From: Paenibacillus aceti | GTDB lineage: Bacteria > Bacillota > Bacilli > Paenibacillales > Paenibacillaceae | Direction: 5' to 3' | Length of the DNA stretch: 64,000 nucleotides | Assembly: GCF_003614185.1 (NCBI RefSeq) | Contig: NZ_KZ987724.1 | Location: forward strand, 2,485,150-2,549,149 | Shown here: positions 33,960-57,120 of the stretch, in pieces | Position numbering within the stretch: position 1 is the stretch's first letter | How the letters are laid out: the number at the start of each line of letters is the position of its first letter | Made by a program: the position numbers and the translations under genes | Notes under the pieces: generated by a model | Told to the model about the DNA's origin: nothing | Database searches by the model: none | Seen by the model: the letters and a program-made list of their open reading frames with translations, nothing else

Positions 33960-34438
33960 CTACAATACCAATTTATTGTATAAATATACACCATAGTTGC
34001 AGCATCGTTTGTTCAGTTTAGGCTGCTTATCACTTTTCACAATCTGATACAGCCTTTTAGCCTTTTTCTTGATAGTATCTTCATGTTTGCGAATGAACAA
34101 GGCTTGCTGCATTAGTAGTTGTCTATATTTCTCGTCCGATACTGCGGCAATATCCATCGGAATAATAACCTCAGGAATTGTAGGAATCATGTTGTTAAGA
34201 TTGATAATTCCTAATTTCCCCTGTTTTATTTTTATGACATCAGGTGCTGACTCTGCTATGTACTCATGTTTTGGTTTAGGGGACGATAGTGGAGCGAAAT
34301 AGGAAAGGCCGTTAATTTCCAATACAACGCCAATAAATTTCCTGTTTTGAGAGGGTCCTTAGATACTAGATGGTCAAACTGTCGAAGATAATCCAGATAA
34401 ACTTTTTCGATTCCGCAGATTTTGAGTGTTTTACTCAT
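33960..34438 (-). pseudogene. ToxN/AbiQ-type type III toxin, frameshifted
   Basis: Two overlapping frames together rebuild a ToxN/AbiQ endoribonuclease. The first (from 34438, KVYLDYLRQFDHLVSKDP) matches the N-terminus. After a frame change near 34345-34350, the second continues with KFIGVVLEINGLSYFAPLSS, the hallmark PLSSPK segment, INLNNMIP and the C-terminal AKRLYQIVKSDKQ. About 155 residues in all, close to family length. The break is in a CTCAAAACAGG stretch. ToxN enzymes cut mRNA and are held inactive by repeats of the toxI RNA. The damage suggests a dead toxin unless the frame change is a sequencing error. Confidence 0.75.
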
Positions 34439-36001: not shown

Positions 36002-37915
36002 CTATTGTTTAATATAAGATGACTCAATGGCTTTAAACTCCTTAGTTGTTTCTACCAATATTACCTTACCTAACTGCCCAATTATATAGTTCCGCAGCTC
36101 CGGGTTTCGGCAATACAGGAAACAACCTTTCATTCCTCTAGAGATTAACACTTTGTATATATTTTTAATTAGCTTTGTCAGTTGGTCATTGTCCTTTTTA
36201 AGTCCCTTTTTCCCTTGTTTGTCCTTATACTCTTCATAGTCAGCATAAATACGCATCGATTGCGGATCATATTTCAAATCATTACCGATGATGACGCCAA
36301 CATAATCAAATTCCAACCCCTGCGAGGTGTGAACACAACCAATTTGTTCTAATCCTCTTTCGTCAATCGCCCAAGTGGAAAGGGCACGTCCATTCCAAGG
36401 CATCTTAAAATCATGTTCTGGAATATCAACATCCTCGATTTCTCCATTTGGATTACCAGCTTTGGCATTCGTCCATTCCCAAGCGTACCCCGCTAGCATT
36501 CTAGCTTTGTAGCCTTCACTTACTTTCTCTTTAATTAGTTCATAAACAGAATTAGGATTATCCATCAATAAGAACTGAAACGCATCTTGATCCCATCCAT
36601 CAAAGTTTCCTGTCTCTCTAATCTGGAAAATATGATCAATCCAATTCAGAAATCCTTCTGCTCCCGAACATCTAAATTGTGCAGACAAGGTGTACTCAAA
36701 GACTTGTGAATGATTCATTTCTGCGATTCGCTTAATTTCTTCAACTGTACCAATGTCATCAGGCCTAATACGTTGATTATCATCAATAAAAAATACATTC
36801 ACTTTGGATGCTTTAATAATATCCTCAATTTGATTCACGCCTTGATACATATATGCACCCTTCCCCTTAAGACGATGAGCCTCATCAACGATTAGTACAT
36901 CAAAGAAATCGGCAGGAGCATTGTAAAATTGACCTGAGCCAGCGAATAGTCCTCTAGCTCTTGATTTATTTTTTGTCTGTTGTTTAACTAAGGTCTCAAC
37001 CATAGCTGTCCTGAATGAGGCATTGGGAGCAACGAACTTTACATTCAGCTTTTTCTTTAGAAGGCCGCCTAATGCATTCATCGAAATGACAGACTTCCCT
37101 GTCCCTGGCCCACCTTTTACGATCAATGTCTTCTTACTCGTTATTTCCTTAGCCTCACTCATAATTGATTCATATGCAATTTTCTGCTCATCTAGCAAAA
37201 TGAATTCAGAATTTCCTTTAAATAACCCATCAATATGTTCAATTAGCTTCTTGGAAGGACGAATTCTCCCATTTTCAATTAAATAGAGCAGGTTTATCCC
37301 GTTTCCTTTGCCGGTATGCTTGTGGATAAACTCCTGCAGCTTAATGGTATCTTCAGACAGAAATAAAGGTGATTGCTTGATGATCGAATGATATTGTTGG
37401 CTTTGAAGTGGATCTGGTTGTGGAGTTCTATAATTATGTAGGTATGAGCACGAATAACTATGAATATTTTGACTTTGAATCGCCTCATTCATATCCTCTA
37501 ATTGCTGTCGATATGACCATGCCTGATAGGAAGGATGTGTCATTTCTCTTTCTTTTCCTCCAACATAAGCAAGTACCACATCCTCACGGTCGGTTGCTTT
37601 TGCTGAATCCCATTGCTTCAACTCTACGATTATAAAATTATTATATCCGGCATCGTCCTGCCCGGTTACAATAAAATCAACTCGCTTGCTCGTAGCTGGA
37701 ATATTATATTCAATCATAATTCCACAATCATCTGCTATCCTTGAGTTACGAATGACACGCTCCATAAATTGCATGGAATTATTCCATGCTCTAATTTCAC
37801 CACGACTCGGTCGCATTCCCATCTTTTTGATGAATGCCTCTTCTATCGATATAGTCAATAAATTACTGTCAACTTTCTCACGAAATTCAAGAGCACTGCT
37901 GCTATAAATAATCAT
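36002..37915 (-). CDS. DUF2075 nuclease-helicase fusion protein
   Basis: About 637 residues. The N-terminal 200 residues look like a PD-(D/E)xK nuclease: Asp in RVDFIVTGQDD (about 80-87) and the ELKQW motif (about 98-102), with an upstream helix containing Glu. The C-terminal two thirds form a DUF2075/Schlafen-like DNA/RNA helicase ATPase with Walker A GGPGTGKSV (about 268-276), Walker B VLIVDEAHRL (about 342-351), FFIDDNQRI, and motif VI-like HTSQGLEFDYVGVIIG. The GTG at 37924 is in frame, but AGAGGTG fits the ATG at 37915. The start follows the MazG-like stop by 11 bp. Likely a nucleic-acid sensing or degrading enzyme in defence; exact function unknown. Confidence 0.8.
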   Translation of the reverse strand: MIIYSSSALEFREKVDSNLLTISIEEAFIKKMGMRPSRGEIRAWNNSMQFMERVIRNSRIADDCGIMIEYNIPATSKRVDFIVTGQDDAGYNNFIIVELKQWDSAKATDREDVVLAYVGGKEREMTHPSYQAWSYRQQLEDMNEAIQSQNIHSYSCSYLHNYRTPQPDPLQSQQYHSIIKQSPLFLSEDTIKLQEFIHKHTGKGNGINLLYLIENGRIRPSKKLIEHIDGLFKGNSEFILLDEQKIAYESIMSEAKEITSKKTLIVKGGPGTGKSVISMNALGGLLKKKLNVKFVAPNASFRTAMVETLVKQQTKNKSRARGLFAGSGQFYNAPADFFDVLIVDEAHRLKGKGAYMYQGVNQIEDIIKASKVNVFFIDDNQRIRPDDIGTVEEIKRIAEMNHSQVFEYTLSAQFRCSGAEGFLNWIDHIFQIRETGNFDGWDQDAFQFLLMDNPNSVYELIKEKVSEGYKARMLAGYAWEWTNAKAGNPNGEIEDVDIPEHDFKMPWNGRALSTWAIDERGLEQIGCVHTSQGLEFDYVGVIIGNDLKYDPQSMRIYADYEEYKDKQGKKGLKKDNDQLTKLIKNIYKVLISRGMKGCFLYCRNPELRNYIIGQLGKVILVETTKEFKAIESSYIKQ

Positions 37916-37926
37916 TAGATGCACCT

Positions 37927-38259
37927 CTACAAGTCAGTATACTTATCCTTCTTACCATACGCCTTTTCTACGGGATATTTTACTTCATTCTTTTTCAGCT
38001 TGTTTAGAATCAACTCTTCAATGCTTATATTTAAAGTCTCCGCCATATAGATCGAATAAATGAGTACATCTGCTAACTCGTCTGCAATATTATCTTTCTT
38101 CAAATCTAGAGCTTCCTCCGGTGATTTCCATTGGAAATTCTCTAGGAGTTCAGATGACTCTATGCTTATTGATATAGCCAAATCTTTTGGATTATGAAAT
38201 TGCTCCCAATTACGGTTTTGACGAAAGGCAAGGACCTTTCTTATGAGTTCTTCATTCAT
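37927..38259 (-). CDS. MazG-like nucleotide pyrophosphohydrolase
   Basis: The 110-residue all-alpha NTP pyrophosphatase is of the MazG/RS21-C6 type. The metal-binding pattern is visible as Glu residues in ISIESSELLENFQW and the second motif NIADELADVLIYSIYMAETL. Such enzymes cleave (d)NTPs or modified nucleotides to monophosphates. AAGGAG lies before the ATG. It is the first gene of a three-gene unit with the DUF2075 protein. In a defence setting it might alter nucleotide pools during infection, which is inference. Confidence 0.85.
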   Translation of the reverse strand: MNEELIRKVLAFRQNRNWEQFHNPKDLAISISIESSELLENFQWKSPEEALDLKKDNIADELADVLIYSIYMAETLNISIEELILNKLKKNEVKYPVEKAYGKKDKYTDL

Positions 38260-38316
38260 GATTTAACTCCTTTCGATAAAATATCTTAACAGTAGATTGT
38301 TGTAGTGGCGTATATA

Positions 38317-38716
38317 TTATTTGTATCTAATGGAATTTATTAGCACAAAAAAACCAACATCATCAACAACATTCCCAGAATCCCCAAACATAATACCGCA
38401 TTCATCATCGATATCCAGTTGTAACAAAAGGAAATTATCATCATCAAAACCCATATATTCATTCTGAATAAAATAGGGATAACCACCAATTCTACTATCA
38501 CTACTATAACAATCATCACTCAGTTTCTCATATTCTACTTCTGAAAGCTCATTCATAAAAGTTCATGAAATAAATCTAATGAAGAAGACATAGGCATTTC
38601 CCTTGTTTAAAAATACATTTTTCATTTTCATAAGGATTTTTCTTTAATAACTGTTCTTCATTTTCTTCATGATCTTCTATATATTTTACCAGGATAGGGC
38701 TTTCTAAACCAAACAT
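38317..38716 (-). pseudogene. DUF1963 (YwqG-like) protein remnant
   Basis: Frame pieces at 38576-38716 (SPILVKYIEDHEENEEQLL) and 38317-38556 (SEVEYEKLSDD, IGGYPYFIQNEYMGFDDDNF, LLLQLDIDDECGIMFGDSGN) together match the C-terminal half of DUF1963 proteins, often found as immunity-type genes in toxin loci. The N-terminal half is missing, and a frameshift separates the pieces around 38557-38575. Confidence 0.55.
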
Positions 38717-39016
38717 GTTTACTTAAATCTATAGCATCATCAGAACCCAAATCGCTAGCGAAGTTATTTATATCAAAGTTCTTAGTAATACTTCTAACTT
38801 CATCATATGTTCGTTGAGAAGGACTCCTTTTTCAATCTGTAAACGAGCTAGAGTAACATAAAATATAGTCTTCTCAGTTTCCCCTTCCTCAATAACATTG
38901 GCAAATTCATACAAGCATCGTCCTCCTGCCTGAAGAGCATTTAGCCCATCTGTCATATAATTTTCGAAGACTTCATTGATATATTCTGTTAGTTCTTTAT
39001 AATCCCACTCCTGCAT
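38667..39016 (-). pseudogene. Imm3-like immunity protein, frameshifted
   Basis: It starts well (AAGGAG before the ATG at 39016) with QEWDYKELTEYINEVFENYM, AGGRCLYEFANVIEEGE and TIFYVTLARLQIEKG, resembling Imm3-family immunity proteins. Near 38825 the homologous-looking frame shifts (SQRTYDEVRSITKNFDINNF). As read, the protein ends after 82 residues, shorter than the family's usual length. It directly follows the deaminase remnant, so toxin and immunity appear to have decayed together. Confidence 0.5.
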
Positions 39017-39046
39017 TCGTTTCTCCTTCCCTGCTGTCCTATTTAA

Positions 39047-39225
39047 CTACTTTACCACCGTTTGTAAAAACGTTTCTGTAATATTCGGGTATTCTCTTCT
39101 AAAGTCGAATATTACATCAGTACAACTTTGGCAAGTAAGTCGCTCTGTAAACAGATTTATTGTCCCTTCCTCATCGTTCAAGTTGGAATAAGCCTTTAAA
39201 AGTTTATCAAGTGTTTGTTAATTGT
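39047..39225 (-). pseudogene. Deaminase-type toxin C-terminal remnant
   Basis: A frame without start codon encodes LKAYSNLNDEEGTINLFTER, then LTCQSCTDVIFDFRREYPNI and a stop at 39047. The TExxxCxSC pattern followed by a PNI strand is the zinc-binding half of polymorphic-toxin deaminases. The upstream half, with the His/Glu motif, is absent. It has no secretion domain and lies immediately before the Imm3-like gene. Confidence 0.5.
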
Positions 39226-39239
39226 TTAGTGTTTGGTTG

Positions 39240-39260
39240 GTTGTATTGCACGATCTTGTT
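39240..39260. repeat. Cassette-boundary repeat, copy 1
   Basis: 21 bp (GTTGTATTGCACGATCTTGT plus T) lie 30 bp beyond the stop of the immunity gene at 39291. Matches copy 2 at 40784-40804 with one mismatch. Confidence 0.55.
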
Positions 39261-39290
39261 GTTGCTCTGTAAACCCGCAAGTTTTAATCT

Positions 39291-39668
39291 TTAACGATGA
39301 TCAAAATTATAACCGCCTTTTCTTGGTAGCAAGTCTTCAAAATCGCACGATGCTATTGCTTTAAAATCAGCGTCCCATAACCCTGTCAGCAAATTAGATA
39401 TTTCAAATACATAGTTACGGTCAATCACATTTTCAGTTGGTTCAATTTCAAGGTAGTACTTGTAATATAGAAAGCCATCATTCCCTTGATTTCTTTTGTC
39501 TTTATCGAAATCACCGTTATTGAAAATAAATATTCCTGCTTGCTTCGTCAATATGCTCGAACCGCTAATAGTACCCATAACAATGTTTGAGACTGTATCT
39601 AGTAACATCTCTTTATCAACATCGCTATCTACAAAAATTTTAGTAAATAAATCATATTCTTCTTCCAA
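39291..39668 (-). CDS. Presumed immunity protein of the nucleotidyltransferase toxin
   Basis: About 125 residues, acidic, soluble. No family recognised. Its start overlaps or abuts the toxin stop codon (GTG at 39677 overlaps it; the TTG at 39668 has GAGGTGA at better spacing). Toxin and partner are therefore translationally coupled, the usual arrangement for polymorphic toxin/immunity pairs. Visible segments: TVSNIVMGTISGSSILTKQA, DGFLYYKYYLEIEPTENV and NLLTGLWDADFKA. Confidence 0.6.
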   Translation of the reverse strand: MEEEYDLFTKIFVDSDVDKEMLLDTVSNIVMGTISGSSILTKQAGIFIFNNGDFDKDKRNQGNDGFLYYKYYLEIEPTENVIDRNYVFEISNLLTGLWDADFKAIASCDFEDLLPRKGGYNFDHR

Positions 39669-39673
39669 CGAAA

Positions 39674-40129
39674 TCACCTCAGATCATTTGATTGGTGTAA
39701 ACGGGGGATTGTCAAAAGGTCCACTGTTTTAATAATTGAAATATCGACATCCATACCTAGCTCTTGTTGGAGTTGTTCCCTAAACTTGCTCAATTTCGCT
39801 TCTCCTGATTGAATTTTCCCTGTTTCAATAGCATGAAGCATTGTTTTCTCCTTAGCAGACCCTGGATTAGGTGGTTTAACTTTACTAAAAGAGCTTTGTA
39901 TTAATTCATCAAATTTCTCAGATAGAACCCTTATAGATATATCAATATCAGAAGTTGGTTTTGCAGTTCCCTTTTCCCGACTGCCTTGAACAAATATATC
40001 ATCACTTATATACCCTACTTTTTCTCGTATCATTGATGATACTTTATCAAATTGTGCCTGTGTAAGTCCTTGAGGTACTTTAAGAGCTTGTCCCGTCCTC
40101 TCAATCCCCTCTTCAATCCCTCTTCCGAT
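39674..40129 (-). pseudogene. Orphan nucleotidyltransferase toxin C-terminal domain
   Basis: The frame is open from about 40129 and encodes a segment beginning RTGQALKVPQGLTQ. A nucleotidyltransferase-fold domain follows with GSREKGTAKPTSDIDIS (GS...DxD motif) and a third Asp in GMDVDISIIKT. Such domains occur as the toxic tips of polymorphic toxins. It has no secretion region of its own; the seam to the pre-toxin fragment at 40115-40462 is broken by a frameshift in the RKRG coding stretch near 40117. The ATG at 40033 could allow internal translation, but the tip would stay in the cytosol. Confidence 0.6.
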
Positions 40130-40462
40130 CTACTTCATATTGCTTCCTCTGAATATTCCGATTCTCCGGAGTCTCGATGCGATACGTATCTGGAACCTTG
40201 ACTTTCATTCCACCTTCAGTAACCACCACGGCTCCGCCGTTCAGCTTAGGCAGTAGCTCGGAGAGCTGCTTGCTCAGTTTGCCGGATATCTTAACTCCCG
40301 ACTTTACTGCTCCTTCCACTAGTGTCAGAGCCAGAAAGGCTTTTACCAAGGCGCGCCCATATCGCTTGCTCTCTTCATAGCTGGCCTTTTCGCTCAATAT
40401 TTTCTCCTGTAAATCATAGACATCCTGGAACGGAACCACGAACTGCAGTCCCTTCTTTTAAC
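40115..40462 (-). pseudogene. Duplicated pre-toxin (PT-TG-like) fragment
   Basis: Encodes VPFQDVYDLQEKILSEKASY through VDRKR. It differs at only nine positions in about 105 residues from the corresponding part of the full-length toxin at 43190-45559. Homology continues upstream to about 40462, but a 5-nt deletion near 40445 breaks the frame. The copy therefore starts and ends out of frame and is a recombination remnant that carries the region just before the toxic tip. Confidence 0.75.
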
Positions 40463-40588
40463 GTGACTTTTGTATGGTTGCTCCTCGTGGTTTCGTATCT
40501 GCTCTGGAAAGTGACCGTGGTTGTAAGTTTGAATCGGTGGGCTGCTAAAGCGCCTTGATACATATATTATTATTCGAATTGATGTGCC

Positions 40589-40708
40589 TTACGCTGTTAG
40601 TATCTGCGCTCGTACTCCTTCGATTTCAAACGATTCTCCGACTTCTGTCGCCATTTGCGACTGTACTTCTTTTACTATTCGTTTCGTACTCCCTCTGATT
40701 TCGGACAT
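40589..40708 (-). CDS. Small reading frame, 39 residues, unknown
   Basis: Encodes MSEIRGSTKRIVKEVQSQMA followed by a mixed-charge tail ending QILTA. Composition is protein-like and helical, which is unusual for this AT-rich spacer. There is no ribosome site before the ATG, so it may be a leftover of a larger toxin-locus gene. The rest of the 40463-40848 spacer contains the boundary repeat at 40784 and nothing else that I recognise. Confidence 0.25.
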   Translation of the reverse strand: MSEIRGSTKRIVKEVQSQMATEVGESFEIEGVRAQILTA

Positions 40709-40783
40709 AAAAAAAGCTCATTCTTACTCATAAAACAAGTTGGAAGGAGTCTTTGAAGGTTTATTAAGTTGGCTGGTTTATTC

Positions 40784-40804
40784 GTTGTATTGTACGATCT
40801 TGTT
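40784..40804. repeat. Cassette-boundary repeat, copy 2
   Basis: 21 bp matching 39240-39260 except for one C/T difference. It lies 44 bp beyond the stop of the Imm6-like gene at 40849, so both copies follow immunity genes. Confidence 0.55.
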
Positions 40805-40848
40805 ATTAAAGTTATAAATACTCTATTTATTAGAGAAAATAGTTAATT

Positions 40849-41130
40849 CTATATTTGTAATTTTTTTAAAACTTCTGCCTGTATATCACTCGTAATATTC
40901 CCATTCTTACAGTCTTCCAATAAAAAAACTATTCTCTGAATATAACTATCTGATTCCTCTACACATCTTTCAAAGCAGTCCATAAAATGGTCTACTAATG
41001 TATCATCGACTAAAGCAATTGGTTCTGGATAATATTTGACGCCTTCTTTTTCAAATGCTTTCCTACTAGTATAAGCAACTGCATCAATAATACAGTTCCA
41101 AGCTGCGACATCCGTTTCATTATCTGACAT
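40849..41130 (-). CDS. Imm6-like immunity protein
   Basis: About 93 residues (106 if a TTG at 41169 is used). The segment AWNCIIDAVAYTSRKAFEKE followed by YYPEPIALVDDTLVDHF resembles the Imm6 family. It follows and, in the longer form, overlaps the pentapeptide-repeat gene by 25 bp. Neither start has a good ribosome site. It may be a second immunity gene of the same cassette or of a lost toxin. Confidence 0.5.
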   Translation of the reverse strand: MSDNETDVAAWNCIIDAVAYTSRKAFEKEGVKYYPEPIALVDDTLVDHFMDCFERCVEESDSYIQRIVFLLEDCKNGNITSDIQAEVLKKLQI

Positions 41131-41144
41131 ATCTTGAATTATTG

Positions 41145-41750
41145 TTATACTATTTTCCTCATTATCCAAAGGGGCTGCTTATTATCTTGTAACCATTTTC
41201 TAGCTTCTTCACCTACTAGAATATTTGGTTGTTCTGGCGTCCCAATATTGATGCTTTTTATAAAAGCCTCTTCTAGCCCCCGAACCCCAGTTAATTTAGC
41301 TCCTTTTAGCAATACTCTTTCAATCGTAGCTAACCACACATCAGCATTAAACAATATTGCATTGCGAAAATCCGTCTCATCAAAAAGACCAGCCACTAAA
41401 TTAGCATCTGATAAATCTGCTTGAACAAACACCGTCTCAATACATTCACTATCAGCAAGTCTAGCAGCTTTAACATTGGCTTTTGTGAAGTCCACATACG
41501 AGACATTAGATTTACAAAAGTCCGCCCCTTCTAAATTTGTAGATATAAAAGTTGATGAACTTAGTAAAGATGAAGAGAAATCTTTGTGATTTAAGTTCAT
41601 GCCATCAAAGATACAAGCTGTTATATATGCTTGGTCTAATGGGTATTGTGACAAATCTAAATTTCGCAAATCAATTTCATCTATACCTAGTTTTTCTCCT
41701 TGTTCTCCAATAGTTTCAATCCAAAGGCGTTGAGATTCTAATCGAGTCAT
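41145..41750 (-). CDS. Pentapeptide-repeat protein, presumed immunity protein
   Basis: The 201-residue protein has tandem A(D/N)LxX pentapeptides across about residues 25-150 (for example LNHKDFSSSLLSSSTFISTN and ADLSDANLVAGLFDETDFRN), which fold into a right-handed quadrilateral helix. Pentapeptide proteins are known as immunity partners of polymorphic toxins. It lies 34 bp beyond the PD-(D/E)xK-like tip. An eight-codon frame starting at ATG 41773 with a perfect AGGAGG overlaps its start as ATGA. Either this is a coupling leader or the true start was cut off by a frameshift. Confidence 0.75.
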   Translation of the reverse strand: MTRLESQRLWIETIGEQGEKLGIDEIDLRNLDLSQYPLDQAYITACIFDGMNLNHKDFSSSLLSSSTFISTNLEGADFCKSNVSYVDFTKANVKAARLADSECIETVFVQADLSDANLVAGLFDETDFRNAILFNADVWLATIERVLLKGAKLTGVRGLEEAFIKSINIGTPEQPNILVGEEARKWLQDNKQPLWIMRKIV

Positions 41751-41784
41751 AATTCTTTGATATCAGTTGTCATACCTAATCCTC

Positions 41785-42189
41785 CTATTGATACCAAATA
41801 ATCCCACCTGATATCCCAGCTTTTTCCATTGCCTCTCTTAACTGTTCAACATGCTCAGGAATCATGTCTCTTTTATCCACAATTACATTGTAAGTTTCAT
41901 CTAGTTCTTTATAAATTGCCTTCATCCCGTTATTTACTGTAAATGCGCCTTTTTTGGGTGAAGTATGACCATTTGGATAAGATACGAAACTTTTAACGTC
42001 CCATTTAACTTTATTTGTTGTATCAATAAATTCTACTCCTCCGTTTCCTTGCGGGTCACGTACTATCTTCCCTAGTTTTCCTTGTTGTTCCAAATCTAGT
42101 CCTAATTTTACCGCCATGTGAAGGATCGCCTGCTAAATCATCCAATTCTTTTTGCGTCCTACCACTCCTTCACCCCTCTTCCGATCTAC
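41785..42189 (-). pseudogene. Orphan PD-(D/E)xK-like toxin C-terminal domain
   Basis: Begins with the seam VDRKRGE (42171-42189), identical for 19 bp to the seam of the full-length toxin. One frame then gives TQKELDDLAGDPSHGGKI. After a frame change the 41785-42117 frame continues LGLDLEQQGKLGKIVRDP, VEFIDTTNKVKWDVKSF and GISGGIIWYQ. The spaced Glu/Asp with DVK resembles a restriction-endonuclease-fold nuclease toxin. The frame breaks and the lack of a secretion region make it an inactive orphan as it stands. A pentapeptide immunity gene follows. Confidence 0.6.
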
Positions 42190-42239
42190 AATATTATATG
42201 AGGATTAAGCGGAGTTATATTATATTCTAGAATTCTCGC

Positions 42240-42617
42240 CTATATAAAAGACATATACCGCCTACCTAGGATATCAAAACGTGACGTATGGCCTTTTTTG
42301 ATTGAAAAATCATCGACACTGTAGCGCTGCTTGTGTCCGACGGATTCGTACGCCCATACAAACCCGATTTTGCAACAAGTACAATACATCCGAATGGACG
42401 GTACGTGCAGATAGGTTTTCATCTCAAACACAGGAAGATGCCGAACAGTCCGCATATTATTGCTTCCTTTACGAATGACATCTTGATCCGACCTACAGCA
42501 GAGGCAACATTGTCTGACGCTGACTGGTAAAGCTTCTATGTGAAGTTCATCGGCATCAATTGGTGAATTTTTAGTTCTGGTAAATCCAGCATTTCGTTGA
42601 TATATTTGTTTCGTCAA
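42240..42617 (-). mobile_element. ISL3-family transposase N-terminal fragment
   Basis: 125 codons with the ISL3-type zinc-binding N-terminus: CCLCCRSDQDVIRKG, then VRHLPVFEMKTYLHVPSIRM and YCTCCKIGFVW. The DDE catalytic domain (about 300 residues) is missing, so only the first quarter of the transposase remains. No clear terminal inverted repeats were found on either side. The insertion lies between the EndoU-type toxin/immunity pair and the first orphan cassette. Confidence 0.65.
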
Positions 42618-42811
42618 GCACTGATTTCAGTTTTGAGCCACAAAAAACAGGTCAATCATGGTGGTATCTGACCATAATAAACTGCTTGATTTATCGGAAT
42701 AGCGTTATTTAGGGTATAAAATTAAAGCATTTGATGTGCGTACAACCGAAATGAAGAAATCTTTATACGGTTGTGTGTTGGGCTCATTGGGTTCTGGGTA
42801 GCCCCCACTTA

Positions 42812-43177
42812 TTAAAGTAATGTAGTTTTTATTTGGTTTAAAAGAAGTTCAACTTTAGATTGCTCCATAGGATATGAAACAAGGTACTGATGTGTTAATT
42901 TATCAAGAAAATCAATGAAGTCTGTATTCGATACTATTTCATATTTAATTTCATCGACTGCTGGCGGTTCAACTTCAAATTTCACGCCCGTATCTCCAAA
43001 ATACCCCTCTTCCCATGATTCATATTCAGATGGAAACGCACAACAGATAAACTCTGAAATACCATATCCTACCGTGTTTGAAAAATCTTCAAGGGCATCT
43101 ACAAATTTATCCTCATCAAGATAGAGGAAGTAAAGCTCCATTGCAGTTAATTCATCAAAATTCTTATCTATTTTCAT
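42812..43177 (-). CDS. Immunity protein of the EndoU-like toxin (CdiI-like)
   Basis: The 121-residue acidic protein starts 12 bp after the toxin stop with AAGGAG before its ATG. The segments ALEDFSNTVGYGISEFICCA, FPSEYESWEEGYFGDTGVKF and the Pro-rich PPAVDEIKYEIV match the immunity proteins paired with EndoU-type CDI toxins. It should bind and neutralise the C-terminal nuclease of the preceding gene in the cytosol. Confidence 0.75.
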   Translation of the reverse strand: MKIDKNFDELTAMELYFLYLDEDKFVDALEDFSNTVGYGISEFICCAFPSEYESWEEGYFGDTGVKFEVEPPAVDEIKYEIVSNTDFIDFLDKLTHQYLVSYPMEQSKVELLLNQIKTTLL

Positions 43178-43189
43178 AGTTTATCTCCT

Positions 43190-45559
43190 TCAGTCTAGTT
43201 TTGGATAAAATTTTGTAATAATACCATTTGCATCCATATACCCTTCGAATTTCAATCCATTTGGAGCAATACCAGTTATTTTTCTTCCGACAATACTACC
43301 AGAATCAATTCCTTGTTGCATAGCGGCTTTACCCCATTCGATTATTGTTGCCTCAGAAATTTTGGATGAGTCATACACAGTTTTTGGATTTTTGAAGTAC
43401 TTATACTCTCCAGTCAAGTTGCCCTTATTATCAAGTTTGGGTATCTTGTAATTAATTTGAATAATTCCATCAATTGTTGGGTGGGGTGTTACCTTGTTAA
43501 TAAAATCCACATCATCTAACTTCAAAACATTTCTGAAATAATTGTAGAACTCACCCATATTGTGACCGCCTGTAATACCTTTGGATGGATCTCGGTCAAA
43601 TTTCTTAACGTTTATTAAATGGTCATCATAATCTGATTTGAAGATTAGATTACCCGTCCCCTTAGTACCCTCTTCACCCCTCTTCCGATCTACCTCATAT
43701 TGTTTCCTCTGAATATCGGGACTCTCTGGAGTCTCGATACGATATGTGTCTGGAACCTTGACCTTCATTCCACCTTCAGCAACCACCACAGCTCCGCCAT
43801 TCAGCTTAGGCAGTAGCTCGGAGAGCTGCCTGCTCAGTCTACCAGATATCTTAACACCTGACTTAACTGCACCTTCTACTAGTGTCAGCGCAAGAAAAGC
43901 TTTCACCAAGGCTCGTCCATACCGCTGGCTCTCTTCATAGCTGGCTTTTCCACTAAGTATTTTCTCCTGTAAATCATAGATATCCTGGAACGGGACTACG
44001 AACTCTTCTGCAGCCCCTTCTTTCAACGCTTCCTTGATATCCTCCAGGGTAATATCTCCATTTGCGATGGCCTTGGCTAGATCATAATATCCCGGCATCG
44101 TCTCTGTCCAGAACTTCGGATTCGTTGGATTGACGGACCAGACCTGCTTCACTAGCCCGCTGCCTTCATCCCAAACCTGACTCACGATTCCATCCCCGAC
44201 TCCTACCGTGGTCATCGCTACCCCAACCCCACTGGCTTTCACACCAGGATCATTCCAATAACCTAGTTCTCTCTCCGCATCTGCCACCTCTATTAGCTCT
44301 TTCGTAATCAGCCCATCTACTTCAAATTCCTTACCCTCATGATAACCACTTAATTCACGCCATACGGCAAACAGGGTACTATGATTATTGGCGATATACT
44401 GATAACCCGCTACAGCAATTAGCAGCTCTTGATTATACTCACCGGTGACTTCTCCATGATACAGATTCATATCTTTAAGAAGCTGCTGCATCTTCCGGAT
44501 GTCTTCCTCAGCGACTAATTGATTATACTCCTCCAACTGCTGCTCTAGCTGCTGACGTTGAAGTACCTTTACCTCCAGTTCGTCATATCTCTGACGAAGC
44601 ACATCCAGTTCAACTTCTCCCAACATCCCCTGCTCCAGCAGGGCTCTGATCTCTTCATCATCTAACAGCAGCGATCGGTCATTCTTTAACGGATTGTATC
44701 TACAGGCTTCCAGTAACCCGCCTTGATAAAAATCACTCAGATCGATGCCTTCTTTATACCATTCCCCCGACACGCCCATCTCTTCGAGCTTCTTCCGCTG
44801 GGCTTCGGCATATTGATGAGCTGACTCCATGTATTCACGATGACCATAGGCCTGATAGACAACATAGGCTTTCTGACTGCGGGCGATTTCCGTAAAGGCC
44901 TCAGCGATTTTTTCTAACTCCAGCTGGGCCAATCTCTGTGCCATGGAATCCCCATTTTGCATCGTTTGCAAAAGGCTGGCAATTCGCGGATCTTCTTTGA
45001 CGGGAGATAGACGAACCAGGAGTCCTTGTCGCTGGATCGCTTGAAGCTGTTCGAATAGATTGGAGAACGCGATGGAATCTGGAGAAGAAGAATTGGTGGG
45101 ACTGAACAAACGGTTTCCTGTCAAATCCTGCAACGGAGCAAAAGGAGATCTCTGATCGAAGTGTGATGTGGATATCTGTGATTGGGACAATTTCTCGGCT
45201 TGTCTATCGGTATCTGCATAATGATTGGTGGCATACTTCAGGCCGCTTACCTTTTCTCTGAGCTGCTCATCGATATGCCTCGCAAGCATTTCAATCTCGC
45301 GAAGCAGGCTTGCGGTCTCTTGGGTAACTGTACGTACGTAATACTCCGAGTAATTCGCTTCTGTATCGTGGAGCAGACGATTCACATCCCTGGACATGCC
45401 GGTAATCTCCTGTTCCATCGTTTGGCGCAGATGCTCCACGACACTAGCCAAGTGGTCGAGCCGGTCAAGATCTATCTTTTGAATGGAAGGGCACCTCCTG
45501 TACACGGTATTTAATTCATAATTTTGGGAATTCATATGTTGTAAGGAAGGTAGATTCAA
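43190..45559 (-). CDS. Polymorphic toxin: helical N-terminus, PG-binding-like and pre-toxin domains, EndoU-like tip
   Basis: About 760-790 residues. Residues 26-110 are alpha-helical (LDRLDHLASVVEHLRQTMEQ), like the N-termini of type VII-exported toxins. The middle has a coiled-coil stretch and a PG-binding-like repeat (MQQLLKDMNLYHGEVTGEYN ... EVDGLITKELIEVA). About residues 530-640 are a PT-TG-like pre-toxin module (VKAFLALTLVEGAVKSG). After the seam VDRKRGE the last 150 residues look like an EndoU ribonuclease (GGHNMGEFYNYF; IIEWGKAAMQQGI; LKFEGYMDANGIITKFYP). The start is uncertain: TTG 45559 and ATG 45535 lack ribosome sites, while an in-frame ATT at 45484 has a perfect AGGAGGTG. No secretion genes are in the window. 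Confidence 0.8.
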   Translation of the reverse strand: MNLPSLQHMNSQNYELNTVYRRCPSIQKIDLDRLDHLASVVEHLRQTMEQEITGMSRDVNRLLHDTEANYSEYYVRTVTQETASLLREIEMLARHIDEQLREKVSGLKYATNHYADTDRQAEKLSQSQISTSHFDQRSPFAPLQDLTGNRLFSPTNSSSPDSIAFSNLFEQLQAIQRQGLLVRLSPVKEDPRIASLLQTMQNGDSMAQRLAQLELEKIAEAFTEIARSQKAYVVYQAYGHREYMESAHQYAEAQRKKLEEMGVSGEWYKEGIDLSDFYQGGLLEACRYNPLKNDRSLLLDDEEIRALLEQGMLGEVELDVLRQRYDELEVKVLQRQQLEQQLEEYNQLVAEEDIRKMQQLLKDMNLYHGEVTGEYNQELLIAVAGYQYIANNHSTLFAVWRELSGYHEGKEFEVDGLITKELIEVADAERELGYWNDPGVKASGVGVAMTTVGVGDGIVSQVWDEGSGLVKQVWSVNPTNPKFWTETMPGYYDLAKAIANGDITLEDIKEALKEGAAEEFVVPFQDIYDLQEKILSGKASYEESQRYGRALVKAFLALTLVEGAVKSGVKISGRLSRQLSELLPKLNGGAVVVAEGGMKVKVPDTYRIETPESPDIQRKQYEVDRKRGEEGTKGTGNLIFKSDYDDHLINVKKFDRDPSKGITGGHNMGEFYNYFRNVLKLDDVDFINKVTPHPTIDGIIQINYKIPKLDNKGNLTGEYKYFKNPKTVYDSSKISEATIIEWGKAAMQQGIDSGSIVGRKITGIAPNGLKFEGYMDANGIITKFYPKLD

Positions 45560-45736
45560 GAGGATTATACATAGATGAAAAGAGTAAATATTATATATAT
45601 TTTATCTATTGATAATACAAAATACAATATTTCCCTTTGTTTAGCTGTAAAAGACAATCACAGCATAACGTCCGTCCGACCAGCCACTTACATGATACGC
45701 ATAAGAACTCGGAAATGTCGTAGTCCATAGGGGATT

Positions 45737-45764
45737 GGGGTGCCAAATGGATATCTGGCACCCC
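45737..45764 (-). terminator. Hairpin downstream of the SLH glycosidase gene
   Basis: GGGGTGCCA and TGGCACCCC form a perfect 9-bp stem 10 bp beyond the stop codon at 45774. No T-run follows, so termination strength is unclear. The rest of 45560-45773 is AT-rich with no gene seen. Confidence 0.5.
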
Positions 45765-45773
45765 GTGAATTCA

Positions 45774-48700
45774 TTAGGAATTGATAAAGCCTAAATATTG
45801 CAGCATCCGCTTCACAGCCACGGCTGCTTGTGCACGTGTTGTATCACTATCCGGTTCAAACGTCGTACTCGTTACCCCTTTCAAAATACCTGCATCACGT
45901 GTCTCCGCGACTGCTGCTTGCGCCCAAGCACTAATCAATCCCTCATCATGATAGACGGTCGCGTCAAGCGGAGTAGGAGCCTGCACTGATTTGCCGACAA
46001 AAGATAGTGCTCTGCTAATCATGATTGCCATCTGCTCTCTTGTAATGGAATCATGAGGTCTGAAGGAACCATCCTCATTGCCTTTCGCGATGCCCGCATC
46101 TACCGCAGCACCTACGGCACCAGCGAACCAATCGGAGGTAGACACATCATGAAACGTCGTTTGGCTTGTGTCCGAGTTTAAGTCTAATGAACGAACCAAT
46201 AGGCTCACAAATTGGGCACGTGTAACCTTTTGATCCGGAGCAAATTGATCTGCGCTCATCCCTTCGATCAGACGCTTGGATGCAAGCAGCTCAATATCCG
46301 CTTTTGCCCAATGATTCTCCAAATCCTTAAATGTTCGGAAGGATTGAATTACGGCGTATTGACCGGTACCATTACGCTTTATCATCACGACCGTCTGACC
46401 GCCTTGTGTCGTAAATATAGAAGGTACGAAAGAGAACCTGCCTGTATTCGGATCAATATAGACCGCTGTTGCCGTATCTGATGATATCGGTTGATCTAGA
46501 ATGATACTGCGCTTCATATGCTTATTTCCTAAATTCGAGAAGGTCTTCGTTTTCCCATTCGCCTCGACTCGAACAGAGAAGTCCATCACCCGATCATCTA
46601 TTAGTGTGGTGTTTTCCCGTTCGGTTTGACTCCGAACCTGCTCTAAATCTTTTCCTTTCACTTGTTCGATCGTGACATAAAGAATCGCATCCTTGGCATC
46701 CGCCCCAAGCTCCTTGATGTACGTGGACAAATCAGGTAATGATACCGGCACTTCAAAGACAGCGTGATTTCCTTGGATTACGATGGTTGCGTTCGGTACG
46801 ATCGCCAACGCATCAATGAGCGATTGTGCCGGAATACCGACTTGTTGGATATCATCTTCACCCATCAATTCAATCGTGACAGAACCGGGCGACTCTTTAC
46901 TCTCCTTCAACTTTTGGAAAGCTTTATTCAATTCATCTACGCTCACTATAGCAGTTAGCATCGTTTGTCCGTTGGGTTTCTTTTCCGACTTAAGCGATAG
47001 TGCACTGCTGTCGAGCTTCCCATTTGTCGAAGGTTCCTCTTTATCTTGAGGTGGTGTTGAGATATTACCACCGCCACCGCCTCCATTGCCACTGCTACTA
47101 CCCGAATCTCCCTTAGAGGCACGGTATATCGACAGATTATAATTTATTGTCAAACCGTCTTCAGACATCACTTGAAGGATCACCGAATTCAATCCAACTT
47201 GGAGCTGCACAGGAATCGCCGAGTCATTCGCGTAGCTCTTCCCGTCCACAAAAATCTGAGCTGTCTTGTTGCTTGCACTCGCCGTAATGTCCAATGCAGT
47301 AACCGCATTATCTACATCAACCTGATAGGCATAGATCGACGGGTCGAAGGAAGGGCTCAGCTTCCCCTTACTTACCGTCAGTGTGCTCAATTGCGCTTTC
47401 GATGCGGCTTTGGAGAAGTAGATACTGACCATTTTGAGTCCGTAATCCAAATCATGTGTCATTCGGTTCTTCACTTCGGGATTAATCGAGCTGTTGGCCT
47501 CAAGTTCGCTTCTCAGGGCTTCGATCTGTTGTTTAGCGATCATTGCTGTGTCGGCTCTCATATCCGCATTCGTATTCAACGCTTGAATTGCCGGTTGAAT
47601 TTTGTGGATAAGGGTATCCCCTTCTTGTCTGCTCATCCCTTCGAAAGGCACGTAAATCTCATTGATTTTACGGATCATTTCTTCCATCACAGTTGCTAGC
47701 GGCTTGGTCTTATCATATTCAGGCAAAATGGCTTGATTACGATACACCCCAATCTTCAGTACCTTGTCATACTTATAATTTAAAAATAGTCCTTCAAATT
47801 CAAATAATGCGGCTCCAGCTCCACCATTCTTTGTCGCTTCGGTAATTTGATCCACTACAGCCGATGTAGGATTGCCTTGGAACGTGTCTAGACCTGATGA
47901 GACGAATGCATTGTCCCCTGCTAATGCCATCGAGTTTCTCAAGTCTGTTACCGTTAATTCCGAACCCGGCGCATAAGACATATGGAACAAGTGATCGATC
48001 AAATGATGATCTAACCAGTATTTCGCTTCTTGTGAGTGTGATTTCGGTGCTTCTTCATAATTCGGCCATACCGCAGTTGTAATTTGTAGCTTTGGTTTGA
48101 TCTGATGCGCCTCGTTAACTACCCGAACGACCCAGGTATTGATCATGTCCGCACGGAATTGTAGCCATTCATCCCAGTAACGATCTCCTGCATGAAGGTC
48201 GAGCGGATCAACGCCATATTTCTCGCTGAACAAATTTCGGGTATACGTGTCGTAACCAAAATCATTCGTGTAATCTCCGGAATCGGGATACCTCAAATAA
48301 TCCAAATGCAGTGAAGCAATATCATATTTCGTGACGAGTTCATTATATACAGAAGCAACGAAATCTCTAGCTTGCGGTAGCGCTGGATTAAGCCAATACC
48401 ACTTGGCATTGTTCATGCCCACTTCATAATCAATACCTTGTCTGCTGACCAAACGCCAATCGGGATGGTTCTCCACAACCGGTCCGCCGACAAAAAAATT
48501 CTCCACCCAGGCATGAATTTCAATCCCCTGTTTCTTGCCTTCCTCAATAAATGCCCCAAGTACATCAAAGCCTTCATACAAAGGATTTAATTCGGTATCG
48601 GGCAAAGACGTTGGCCAAGTCGTATATCCATTCCACCACGTTTCCAGATAGATGGCATTGATACCGGTCTCCTTGATTTTCTTCACATGATCTCTGACCT

Positions 48701-50420
48701 GCTCCAGATTCTTTTCCTTCGGCCTCATCCAGAGACCTCGAGTCTGTACTCTCGGAGACTCAAAATTCATGTAACTTGCATCCGTCACTTTCTGATCCAA
48801 GTCATTCAGTAAATCCAACAATCCATTGGTACCGCTTTCATTTAAACGCTGTTTGACCAGCTCATAAACATCCTTCGCTTCTACAATCTTCTGTTCAATA
48901 TCGGCATAAGGCACATCCATAAATTGATGCTTGGATAACTGAAGCGCCTTCTCTGCGCTGTCGATACTAATCGATGCTCTATCTAAGTAAGATTCCGGAG
49001 TGAAAATAGCCAACACTTCTTTTTTAGTAAAATCCAGACTTAATTTAGCTCCGACCAGGGCGTTATTCTTTAGCCATGTGTTTTTAACACCATGACCGGA
49101 TAATACATAGCCGCCTTCAGGAATTTTACTGTTGTTCCCACCGTTGCTCGTCACATATCCATTCGCATTAACAATCACTTCATTGCCCCATGAGTTTGTG
49201 CCAGTCTCCTCGCCATAATTACGATCATAGACGATCAACTGATCCGATCCACGAAATCCTGGATAAGGCACATTGCCATCATTGTCCCAGCCTGCGGGAT
49301 TATCTTCTTTTACTTTCGGATTAAATGCGTCAAACGAGGTTCTAGCTGCTTGGTAAATTAAACTATCCGTTACTAGCTCAACCTCTGCACCAATATGCAC
49401 TTGGCCCGCTAATTGGTTATAGAGTGGACTTGCCGCTTGAATAGACAGTACATATCCATCCGCTGGAATGGAGGAGTTGTTATCAAGATACCCCCCTGTG
49501 TTAGGGTCGTATGCAATCTCCACAACATTGGTTACCTTATTGCCAACCACTGTAATCTCCATTCCCCAAGCATTCTGATTGGTGGTTGCGCCATAAGTAG
49601 GCTGGTACAACACTACTTCTCCCGATCCACGCGGTCCATTTATTTTATCAATGCCTACCGCAATACCATTCACTTTCAAATATTTGCTAGGCAGAATAGG
49701 AATATCTACATTAATCGCTTGTACGGACTGCCCCACCACCAAATTCAAGGATGACGCAGCGTTGCCAGAAGCCGAAATGACATAACCGTTCGCAGGAATG
49801 TAGGTTCCATTCTGACCATGAACATCATATGTGCTTTTTACAACTACCACATCATTGGTAATGATATATTGAACGGTATCTTCAGAGAACGGTCTTGTCA
49901 TCTCCCCAAAATGACGTGTATAGACCGCGATGGTATTGGTCGGTTGATCCTGATCTACAACGTCGATCGGTATGGAGCCCTGCTCTGTGATGAGCTGTGG
50001 ACCTCCGACTACTGGATCAGGCAGCGTATAGCCAACAATCTCAACCGGATCTCCCGGACTCATATTGTCTTTAATCCACTGTTCACTCGATCCGTGACCA
50101 AACAGTACAAAGCCATTCGTCGGTATTTGTACAGCGCCTTCACGATAAGTGACGTCCGTAACGCTGTAAGTACCTTCATGGTAGTCCACGACGGCGGCAG
50201 CCGCGTAAGGGTTCGAATCTGTGAGCTTACTACTGTTTTCCCTTGTAAACAAAATCATTTCATCCGAAGCTCCGATGGCTCGATTCACTGCTGTAATACT
50301 GATAGTGTTGCCATTTAAAGCTTTCGCCGTGATGGCTTCATCGGCCGACACACTCAACGTCATACCTGAAAAAATGAGAACAAAACATAAGATGAAAGAT
50401 AGCGTATTCTTTAATCTCAT
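45774..50420 (-). CDS. SLH-anchored GHL10-family glycoside hydrolase-like exoprotein
   Basis: The 1548-residue secreted protein has a signal peptide (ends near VSADEA, about residue 29). Four related N-terminal modules of about 100 residues follow, each with an IPxxGYVLS/FVLFGHG-type motif. A GHL10 barrel comes next (about 555-900; TRGLWMRPKEKNLEQVRDHV, AIYLETWWNG, ASLHLDYLRYPD). After it come a helical region, a cadherin-like beta-sandwich (LSTLTVSKGKLSPSFDPSIY), a Gly/Ser linker and three C-terminal SLH domains (HWAKADIELLASKRLIEGMS and two more) that bind cell-wall polymers. The first N-terminal modules may bind sugar. GGGGAGGT lies before the ATG. Likely acts on cell-wall or extracellular polysaccharide. 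Confidence 0.88.
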   Translation of the reverse strand: MRLKNTLSFILCFVLIFSGMTLSVSADEAITAKALNGNTISITAVNRAIGASDEMILFTRENSSKLTDSNPYAAAAVVDYHEGTYSVTDVTYREGAVQIPTNGFVLFGHGSSEQWIKDNMSPGDPVEIVGYTLPDPVVGGPQLITEQGSIPIDVVDQDQPTNTIAVYTRHFGEMTRPFSEDTVQYIITNDVVVVKSTYDVHGQNGTYIPANGYVISASGNAASSLNLVVGQSVQAINVDIPILPSKYLKVNGIAVGIDKINGPRGSGEVVLYQPTYGATTNQNAWGMEITVVGNKVTNVVEIAYDPNTGGYLDNNSSIPADGYVLSIQAASPLYNQLAGQVHIGAEVELVTDSLIYQAARTSFDAFNPKVKEDNPAGWDNDGNVPYPGFRGSDQLIVYDRNYGEETGTNSWGNEVIVNANGYVTSNGGNNSKIPEGGYVLSGHGVKNTWLKNNALVGAKLSLDFTKKEVLAIFTPESYLDRASISIDSAEKALQLSKHQFMDVPYADIEQKIVEAKDVYELVKQRLNESGTNGLLDLLNDLDQKVTDASYMNFESPRVQTRGLWMRPKEKNLEQVRDHVKKIKETGINAIYLETWWNGYTTWPTSLPDTELNPLYEGFDVLGAFIEEGKKQGIEIHAWVENFFVGGPVVENHPDWRLVSRQGIDYEVGMNNAKWYWLNPALPQARDFVASVYNELVTKYDIASLHLDYLRYPDSGDYTNDFGYDTYTRNLFSEKYGVDPLDLHAGDRYWDEWLQFRADMINTWVVRVVNEAHQIKPKLQITTAVWPNYEEAPKSHSQEAKYWLDHHLIDHLFHMSYAPGSELTVTDLRNSMALAGDNAFVSSGLDTFQGNPTSAVVDQITEATKNGGAGAALFEFEGLFLNYKYDKVLKIGVYRNQAILPEYDKTKPLATVMEEMIRKINEIYVPFEGMSRQEGDTLIHKIQPAIQALNTNADMRADTAMIAKQQIEALRSELEANSSINPEVKNRMTHDLDYGLKMVSIYFSKAASKAQLSTLTVSKGKLSPSFDPSIYAYQVDVDNAVTALDITASASNKTAQIFVDGKSYANDSAIPVQLQVGLNSVILQVMSEDGLTINYNLSIYRASKGDSGSSSGNGGGGGGNISTPPQDKEEPSTNGKLDSSALSLKSEKKPNGQTMLTAIVSVDELNKAFQKLKESKESPGSVTIELMGEDDIQQVGIPAQSLIDALAIVPNATIVIQGNHAVFEVPVSLPDLSTYIKELGADAKDAILYVTIEQVKGKDLEQVRSQTERENTTLIDDRVMDFSVRVEANGKTKTFSNLGNKHMKRSIILDQPISSDTATAVYIDPNTGRFSFVPSIFTTQGGQTVVMIKRNGTGQYAVIQSFRTFKDLENHWAKADIELLASKRLIEGMSADQFAPDQKVTRAQFVSLLVRSLDLNSDTSQTTFHDVSTSDWFAGAVGAAVDAGIAKGNEDGSFRPHDSITREQMAIMISRALSFVGKSVQAPTPLDATVYHDEGLISAWAQAAVAETRDAGILKGVTSTTFEPDSDTTRAQAAVAVKRMLQYLGFINS

Positions 50421-57119: not shown

Positions 57120-57120
57120 G

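What the first reader, a model, noticed from the sequence alone, without database searches (positions are those of the whole stretch)
38317..45559. Row of orphan toxin-tip/immunity cassettes downstream of one full-length polymorphic toxin
One complete toxin with EndoU-like tip and immunity gene is followed on the same strand by at least three further tips without secretion regions: PD-(D/E)xK-like with a pentapeptide protein, nucleotidyltransferase with its partner, and a deaminase remnant with an Imm3-like remnant. Two of them still carry part of the sequence found just before the tip of the full-length toxin. Orphan tips of this kind are known for CdiA and Rhs loci; here they hang on a Gram-positive toxin with pre-toxin and PG-binding-like modules. 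The array may be a reservoir for switching the active tip by recombination, with the immunity genes kept for protection.
Basis: partly seen in the sequence, partly recalled or inferred. Interest (0 to 1): 0.8.

Follow-up and report, generated by a model that had tools for sequence, protein, structure and literature searches.

The report
Fossil row of swapped toxin tips
A Paenibacillus-group bacterium carries one intact-looking weapon against rival bacteria followed by a trail of worn-out former warheads and antidotes, and the swapped pieces end in shared stop signals that recur in many related species.

Summary
Each of the three orphan tips occurs fused to a body of this toxin family in another genome of the genus. 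The active EndoU tip is 96% identical in DNA to a tip on a body only 35% identical in protein, the match beginning at the tip boundary. Tip exchange is therefore well supported. A reservoir for switching back is not: all three orphan tips are damaged, and the Imm6 and deaminase remnants are cut where other cassettes join them. It reads as a layered record of past tips more than a spare set. Orphan rows behind Gram-positive type VII toxins are already described (Enterococcus faecalis). What I did not find described is that many cassettes end in one of two sequence-conserved terminator-like elements, seen in about half of the genus genomes behind unrelated toxin/immunity pairs on type VII-type and Rhs-like bodies. 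They may mark the 3' end of the exchange unit; that role is inferred.

The parts
43652..45484 (-). constant body of the full-length toxin; likely start codon ATT at 45484 behind AGGAGGTG; linker just before the tip at about 43678-44028
   Evidence: body family in 17 of 41 genus genomes, this one included; ATT at the same codon in 10 of 10 subfamily copies listed
43190..43651 (-). active EndoU nuclease tip
   Evidence: PF14436 E 1e-10; 96% nt over 399 nt to a tip on a different body in G010
42812..43177 (-). cognate immunity gene, CdiI_4
   Evidence: PF18624 E 3e-15; 5hkq CdiI
42632..42783 (-). conserved terminator-like element T2, 3' end of the active cassette
   Evidence: R2 match E 5e-26, the only one in this genome at E<=1e-6
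42240..42617 (-). ISL3-type transposase remnant (zinc ribbon)
   Evidence: PF14690 E 2e-5, 25.2 bits against cut-off 25.5
42162..42189 (-). 28-nt scrap of the pre-tip linker
   Evidence: direct repeat family D2
41785..42163 (-). orphan PD-(D/E)xK-like tip; first part missing from its ORF
   Evidence: 41168-42163 is 93.8% nt to G011 over 1026 aligned columns, net gap 30 nt; ORF against relatives; fused in G011, G031, G028
41145..41750 (-). pentapeptide-repeat immunity gene of that cassette
   Evidence: PF00805 E 1e-12; same pair in G011, G031, G077, G088 and G028
40849..41169 (-). Imm6 3' fragment of another cassette
   Evidence: PF14434 E 2e-11, profile 53-118 of 121
40709..40827 (-). conserved terminator-like element T1, first copy
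   Evidence: R1 match E 6e-17; folds weakly itself
40118..40463 (-). displaced copy of the pre-tip linker, its frame stopping before the tip
   Evidence: 86.9-90% nt to linkers of three bodies in this genome; stop noted
39674..40104 (-). orphan nucleotidyltransferase tip, C-terminus altered
   Evidence: PF01909 E 3e-8; 39170-40104 (tip, partner, T1) is 92.5% nt over 941 columns to a fused toxin locus in G025
39291..39677 (-). partner (presumed immunity) gene
   Evidence: no Pfam match; a like gene follows the tip in G025, G010 and G030
39148..39283 (-). T1 element, second copy, its end running into the deaminase remnant
   Evidence: R1 match E 1.5e-12; junction read
39039..39168 (-). C-terminal remnant of a BURPS668_1122-type deaminase tip
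   Evidence: aligned with Imm3 at 74% nt to G031 L039 5614-6052; there PF14424 E 8e-41
38768..39016 (-). Imm3 5' fragment
   Evidence: PF14425 E 2e-6, profile 2-62 of 119
38317..38556 (-). DUF1963 3' fragment, possibly a further immunity remnant (that role is recalled, not tested)
   Evidence: PF09234 E 2e-9, profile 135-192 of 216
45665..45736 (.). 72-nt scar of a GHL10-like gene that occupies this place in three relatives
   Evidence: 87.7-91.7% to the 402-aa gene in G011, G031, G032

Best explanation
A polymorphic toxin with a type VII-type body changes its tip when an incoming tip+immunity(+terminator) cassette recombines at the pre-tip linker. The older cassette is pushed downstream, often losing part where the newcomer's 3' end joins it, and then decays. 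The row 42.8-38.3 kb is thus a layered record of former tips (EndoU active; PD-(D/E)xK with pentapeptide; an Imm6-bearing cassette; nucleotidyltransferase; deaminase/Imm3; perhaps a DUF1963 one), possibly with some immunity genes still protective. Many cassettes end in one of two sequence-conserved terminator-like elements (T1, T2) that travel with them and may serve as the 3' homology. Shown: same tips on different bodies, a sharp 5' boundary, a shared 3' element, lesions. Inferred: order of arrival, recombination route, protection by the remaining immunity genes, export by type VII, termination by T1/T2 and their role in exchange.
For: Tips fused to bodies elsewhere: PD-(D/E)xK in G011, G031, G028, nucleotidyltransferase in G025 and on a 2793-aa Rhs-like protein in G030, deaminase in G031. 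Active EndoU tip 96% nt over 399 nt to G010, whose body is 35% identical over the 219 aa aligned. Other bodies in this genome carry HNH, RNase A, Ntox30 and an unidentified tip. G077 and G011 (different genera) share 1248 nt at 96.4%, from just before the tip to about 46 nt past T1; G088, on a protein with a baseplate-hub domain, shares 1264 nt at 89.7% with G011. T1: 69 matches in 19 of 41 genus genomes, 4 in this genome, all 4 at toxin loci; 16 of 17 body-bearing genomes have T1 against 3 of 24 others, Fisher 1.4e-7. T2: 86 matches in 26 of 40 genomes. Within 10 kb of a body hit: 26 of 69 T1 and 20 of 86 T2, against about 0.5% of bases. On the window branch the two orphan tips have 12N:10S unique changes against 7N:29S on other branches, p 0.009.
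Against: Only one genome per species was available, so no switch was seen within a species. The displaced linker is closer to another body in the genome (90%) than to its neighbour (86.9%), so its source may be another locus or a decayed tandem toxin. T1/T2 are not exclusive to toxins: T1 follows a Mutator transposase (L128), a FlxA-like gene (L141) and a gene by eye glycosidase-like beside the SLH gene in G011 (L099); T2 ends the GHL10-like gene (L187). The window's T1 and T2 fold only modestly better than shuffles (z -1.45, -1.72) and a simple terminator scan missed both. Each tip alone is not significant (p 0.09, 0.08), and the nucleotidyltransferase tip still looks constrained while its partner less so. 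The secretion route is not proven.
Confidence: 0.8

Rival explanations
1. Decayed tandem array: several full-length toxins once stood head to tail and lost their bodies by deletion, with no displacement of tips.
For: G011 has three body copies within about 16 kb, one of them frame-broken; the displaced linker is not closest to its neighbour.
Against: The PD-(D/E)xK, Imm6 and deaminase pieces keep no more than a scrap of body; cassette ends join the interior of other genes; tips are shared between different bodies. It could still explain the nucleotidyltransferase piece.
Confidence: 0.3
2. Functional reservoir: orphans are kept to be switched in.
For: One orphan keeps a 346-nt linker at 86.9%; recombination between main and orphan was proposed from evolved Salmonella Rhs lines with 522 bp at 95% (PMC3967940, passages read).
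Against: All three orphan tips are damaged; the two scored tips show more non-synonymous change together.
Confidence: 0.1
3. Retained antidotes: the row is kept by selection on the immunity genes against rival strains, the tips being debris.
For: Pentapeptide and nucleotidyltransferase-partner ORFs look full length while their tips are damaged.
Against: Two or three other immunity genes are fragments; substitution counts for immunity are not significant (13N:7S against 19N:20S, p 0.28) and the partner's pairwise ratio against G025 is 0.51.
Confidence: 0.35
4. T1 and T2 are ordinary repeat terminators of the genus that happen to sit behind toxin genes.
For: Both occur behind some non-toxin genes; most ORFs before them got no toxin or immunity Pfam name.
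Against: In this genome all five copies found lie at toxin loci; conservation runs 80-100 nt beyond the hairpin; 26 of 69 and 20 of 86 lie within 10 kb of a body hit.
Confidence: 0.35

Closest known systems
Orphan toxins behind LXG toxins of the type VII locus of Enterococcus faecalis OG1RF (PMC7790226, passages read)
   Same: Gram-positive, orphan tips downstream with over 75% nt similarity to part of the full toxin, full-length counterparts in other strains and species
   Different: there LXG toxins; here no LXG match, orphan tips damaged, and a conserved terminator-like element at cassette ends
rhs-CT/rhsI orphans of Salmonella (PMC3967940, passages read)
   Same: displaced tips with immunity and shared pre-tip DNA
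   Different: there 522 bp at 95% and rearrangement in evolved lines; here 346 nt at 86.9% and no switching seen
mafB-CT/mafI cassettes of Neisseria (PMC4287609, passages read)
   Same: alternative tips with immunity behind a full-length toxin, same tips fused in other strains
   Different: different body and export; no shared terminator in the passages read
Polymorphic toxin cassettes in general (PMC3482391, passages read)
   Same: tip+immunity replaced by one recombination event; strings of immunity genes as remnants
   Different: the T1/T2 3' elements, not mentioned in the passages read

Membership tests
Polymorphic-toxin orphan cassettes (CDI/Rhs/type VII kind) | full-length toxin with tip and cognate immunity upstream | tested here: met
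   EndoU with CdiI_4
Polymorphic-toxin orphan cassettes (CDI/Rhs/type VII kind) | downstream tips lacking the secretion region, with immunity genes | tested here: met
Polymorphic-toxin orphan cassettes (CDI/Rhs/type VII kind) | orphans retain pre-tip homology to the body | tested here: met
   346 nt at 86.9% for one, about 28 nt for a second, none found for the third
Polymorphic-toxin orphan cassettes (CDI/Rhs/type VII kind) | same tips found fused elsewhere | tested here: met
   3 of 3 tips
Polymorphic-toxin orphan cassettes (CDI/Rhs/type VII kind) | tip switching within a strain or species | not testable with these tools
   one genome per species held
LXG effectors of type VIIb secretion | Pfam LXG N-terminal domain | tested here: not met
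   no LXG among matches up to E 1 for the full toxin
LXG effectors of type VIIb secretion | type VIIb machinery in the genome | tested here: inconclusive
   EssC 1283 bits with WXG100 genes beside it, but no YukC/EssB match
LXG effectors of type VIIb secretion | WXG-like helical N-terminus | tested here: inconclusive
EndoU/CdiI toxin-immunity pair | EndoU domain with a CdiI_4 partner | tested here: met
   catalysis and neutralisation not tested

The most novel reading that the evidence does not exclude
T1 and T2 are cassette-end modules of the genus: a conserved terminator that both insulates each toxin/immunity pair and gives a common 3' recombination end, so that tips move as cassettes between type VII, Rhs and VgrG-type bodies.
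Probability: 0.3. Interest if true: 0.75.

Novelty: new variant of a known kind. Interest (0 to 1): 0.5.

Why it matters
It turns a known idea (tips swap at the 3' end of polymorphic toxin genes) into a readable sequence record with both boundaries visible, and proposes a concrete, searchable mark for the 3' end of the exchange unit. If T1/T2 act in exchange, they would help explain how different delivery systems share warheads and would let cassettes be found without knowing the toxin.

Tried and rejected
Considered and rejected: integron-type attC sites for T1/T2 (no such boxes seen by eye, not tested by a tool); a known RNA family (Rfam: 0 matches up to E 1 in 37900-46000). T1 as a covarying RNA: the pairing is conserved (97.2% of cells) but hardly covaries, so only a hairpin is claimed; T2 shows modest covariation. 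The window's own T1 and T2 fold only modestly (z -1.45 and -1.72) unlike the G025 T1 copy (z -4.06), and the simple scan listed neither among its 3 terminator-like sites (shuffle mean 5.0). A PDB search with the body alignment gave 6 chains, best a designed protein at E 0.004, nothing useful. Literature on a conserved terminator at toxin cassettes: one search found 0 papers, one search found 2 and neither fits by title and abstract, one search found 150 with two of three terms of which 8 were listed and none fits; the library lacks most subscription journals. One search was an empty script.

Limits of the counts. In one search the HNH row of the boundary alignment was read out of frame and is not used. 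The dN/dS pairs are small samples. The distant G010 immunity gene was left out of the p values, as was the deaminase/Imm3 pair. The body list was typed with several second pieces of the same copy left out, and the 0.5% is an estimate from 41 genomes of 5.5 Mb. Pfam tallies covered 46 of 56 ORFs listed, 45 of 58 and 53 of 60; the window's own were left out of the last two; one search shows 25 of 36 families; each toxin or immunity family matched only 1 to 3 members, so most ORFs have no toxin name. Both models were built from toxin-linked copies.
Full report
What is there. The window lies at C1:2485150-2549149 of a 5.6-Mb genome. One genus member, G031, has a contig of the same length (5,748,347) as Paenibacillus sp. 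D2_2, the one record that a named search returned for this body; so I take the genus to be Paenibacillus or a GTDB split of it. On the minus strand from 45.5 to 38.3 kb stand a full-length toxin with EndoU tip and CdiI_4 immunity gene, a conserved element (T2), an ISL3 transposase remnant, a PD-(D/E)xK-like tip with pentapeptide gene, an Imm6 fragment, a T1 element, a displaced linker with a nucleotidyltransferase tip and partner, a second T1, a deaminase remnant with an Imm3 fragment, and a DUF1963 fragment.

Where it sits. The stretch 33-44 kb has 32-40% G+C, against mostly 46-55% before it. The gene upstream (45774-50420, S-layer-homology repeats by eye) has strong orthologues in G011, G032 and G031 (split in two frames there); a weaker 42% match in G025 was not examined. 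In those three it is followed by a 402-aa GHL10-like gene; here that gene is gone but for a 72-nt scar at 45665-45736. G032 has no match to the toxin body at E<=1e-10. In G031 a deaminase-tipped toxin lies on the other side of the same gene. So the row sits in a replaced, variable island.

Tips are exchanged. The body family is present in 17 of 41 genus genomes at E<=1e-10, this one included. In this genome other bodies, some of them incomplete, carry HNH with a SUKH gene, RNase A with CdiI_2, Ntox30 with a partner of weak HEAT-type matches, and an unidentified tip. Of 196 relatives searched, 18 match the PD-(D/E)xK tip at E<=1e-5, 7 the nucleotidyltransferase tip at E<=1e-5 and 14 the EndoU tip at E<=1e-8; each count includes this genome and distant matches. 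The active EndoU tip is 96% identical in DNA over 399 nt to one in G010 whose body is 35% identical over 219 aa; the match starts at the tip boundary and the G010 copy lacks the last part. The PD-(D/E)xK cassette is shared at 96.4% over 1248 nt between G077 and G011, placed in different genera, and at 89.7% over 1264 nt between G088 and G011; in G088 the protein has a phage baseplate hub domain. The nucleotidyltransferase tip ends a 2793-aa protein in G030 that I call Rhs-like from its size, its translation and its similarity to other repeat ORFs, with no Pfam scan of it.

Why a record rather than a reserve. The PD-(D/E)xK ORF lacks the first part of the tip and is preceded by only a 28-nt linker scrap; the nucleotidyltransferase tip has a changed C-terminus and its linker frame stops before it; the deaminase tip keeps about its last 40 residues. 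The pentapeptide gene runs straight into the interior of an Imm6 gene, and the second T1 runs into the interior of the deaminase tip: cassette 3' ends join the middle of other genes. Unique changes on the window branch are 12 non-synonymous to 10 synonymous in the two scored orphan tips against 7 to 29 on the other branches (p 0.009; each tip alone p 0.09 and 0.08); the two immunity genes show no significant difference (13:7 against 19:20, p 0.28). Pairwise, the PD-(D/E)xK tip has ratios of 0.31-0.46 against relatives (0.07-0.28 among them), the pentapeptide gene 0.17-0.23 (0.18-0.23 among them); but the nucleotidyltransferase tip still looks constrained (0.05-0.10) and its partner less so against G025 (0.51), which goes against a simple story of kept immunity.

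The conserved cassette ends. T1 (about 134 nt) is a hairpin with a T run preceded by an A/C-rich conserved stretch; T2 (about 153 nt) is a different one. Both models were built from toxin-linked copies and then run on whole genomes. T1: 69 matches at E<=0.001 in 19 of 41 genomes (stricter filters used by the tool), 4 in this genome, all at toxin loci. T2: 86 at E<=1e-6 in 26 of 40, one in this genome, behind the active cassette. Thirty loci of each were looked at: an ORF ends within 60 nt of the T1 start in 25 of 30, five of the 30 being farther away, and within 115 nt of the T2 start in 27 of 30. By blastp against the toxins of alignment A4 and the G030 Rhs-like protein, 7 of 27 T1 loci have an upstream ORF like a type VII-type toxin (in L139 and L149 mainly in the tip); of 28 T2 loci, 5 do (in L170 mainly in the tip) and 10 match the Rhs-like protein; these counts include loci that supplied the queries. 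Pfam names among these ORFs include EndoU, Ntox30, Ntox50, CdiA_C, Colicin E5, an HNH toxin, deaminases, pretoxin HINT, Imm3, SUKH and CdiI_4, each in 1 to 3 ORFs, so most ORFs are unnamed. Exceptions seen are a Mutator transposase, a FlxA-like gene, a glycosidase-like gene by eye, integrase-core ORFs and the GHL10-like gene. T2 of the window and of G001 are 94% identical over 132 nt. I infer, without proof, that these ends travel with cassettes and may offer 3' homology.

Delivery. The genome has EssC (1283 bits) with WXG100 genes beside it and further body hits within 35 kb; in G025 the nucleotidyltransferase toxin stands directly before a cluster that by eye matches the one beside EssC here. 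YukC was not found and the toxin has no LXG match. So it may work like a type VII effector; membership in the LXG family is not claimed.

Known and new. Orphan rows behind Gram-positive type VII toxins (PMC7790226), remnant strings (PMC3482391), Rhs rearrangement in evolved lines (PMC3967940), mafB cassettes (PMC4287609) and orphan immunity genes in Listeria (PMC10327511) are in print; I read passages only. For conserved terminators at cassette ends three searches gave no fitting paper among those listed. Verdict: ordinary in kind, unusually legible, with one possibly new feature.

Noticed in passing
45484 (-), and L033, L034, L035, L037 (two), L084, L004, L021, L041: In 10 of 10 listed copies of this body subfamily (this genome, G011, G031) the likely start codon is ATT behind an AGGAGG-type site in most; related bodies often have TTG at that codon.
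   Followed up: partly
33963-34322, 36005-37924, 51932-57128: Defence-type genes flank the row: AbiQ-like, an AbiO/Nhi-like protein with a Schlafen-group helicase domain, and JetC/JetB (Wadjet-like).
   Followed up: no
L037 18066-18160 and just after several T1 copies: After T1 there is in several loci a ribosome-binding-like site and a short similar reading-frame start that soon differs between loci; it may give a start to following orphan tips.
   Followed up: partly
L032 (C1:4544000-4563500): A repeat of about 6.5 kb holding a 930-aa protein, a small protein and a body without its N-terminal region; the stretch has runs of N.
   Followed up: no
L120 1-2700 (G077): Two PD-(D/E)xK/pentapeptide cassettes in a row at a contig start, the first followed by T1 and the second by T2.
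   Followed up: partly
L121 8425-11274 (G088): The PD-(D/E)xK tip on a protein with a phage baseplate hub domain, in a cluster that looks baseplate-like by eye.
   Followed up: partly
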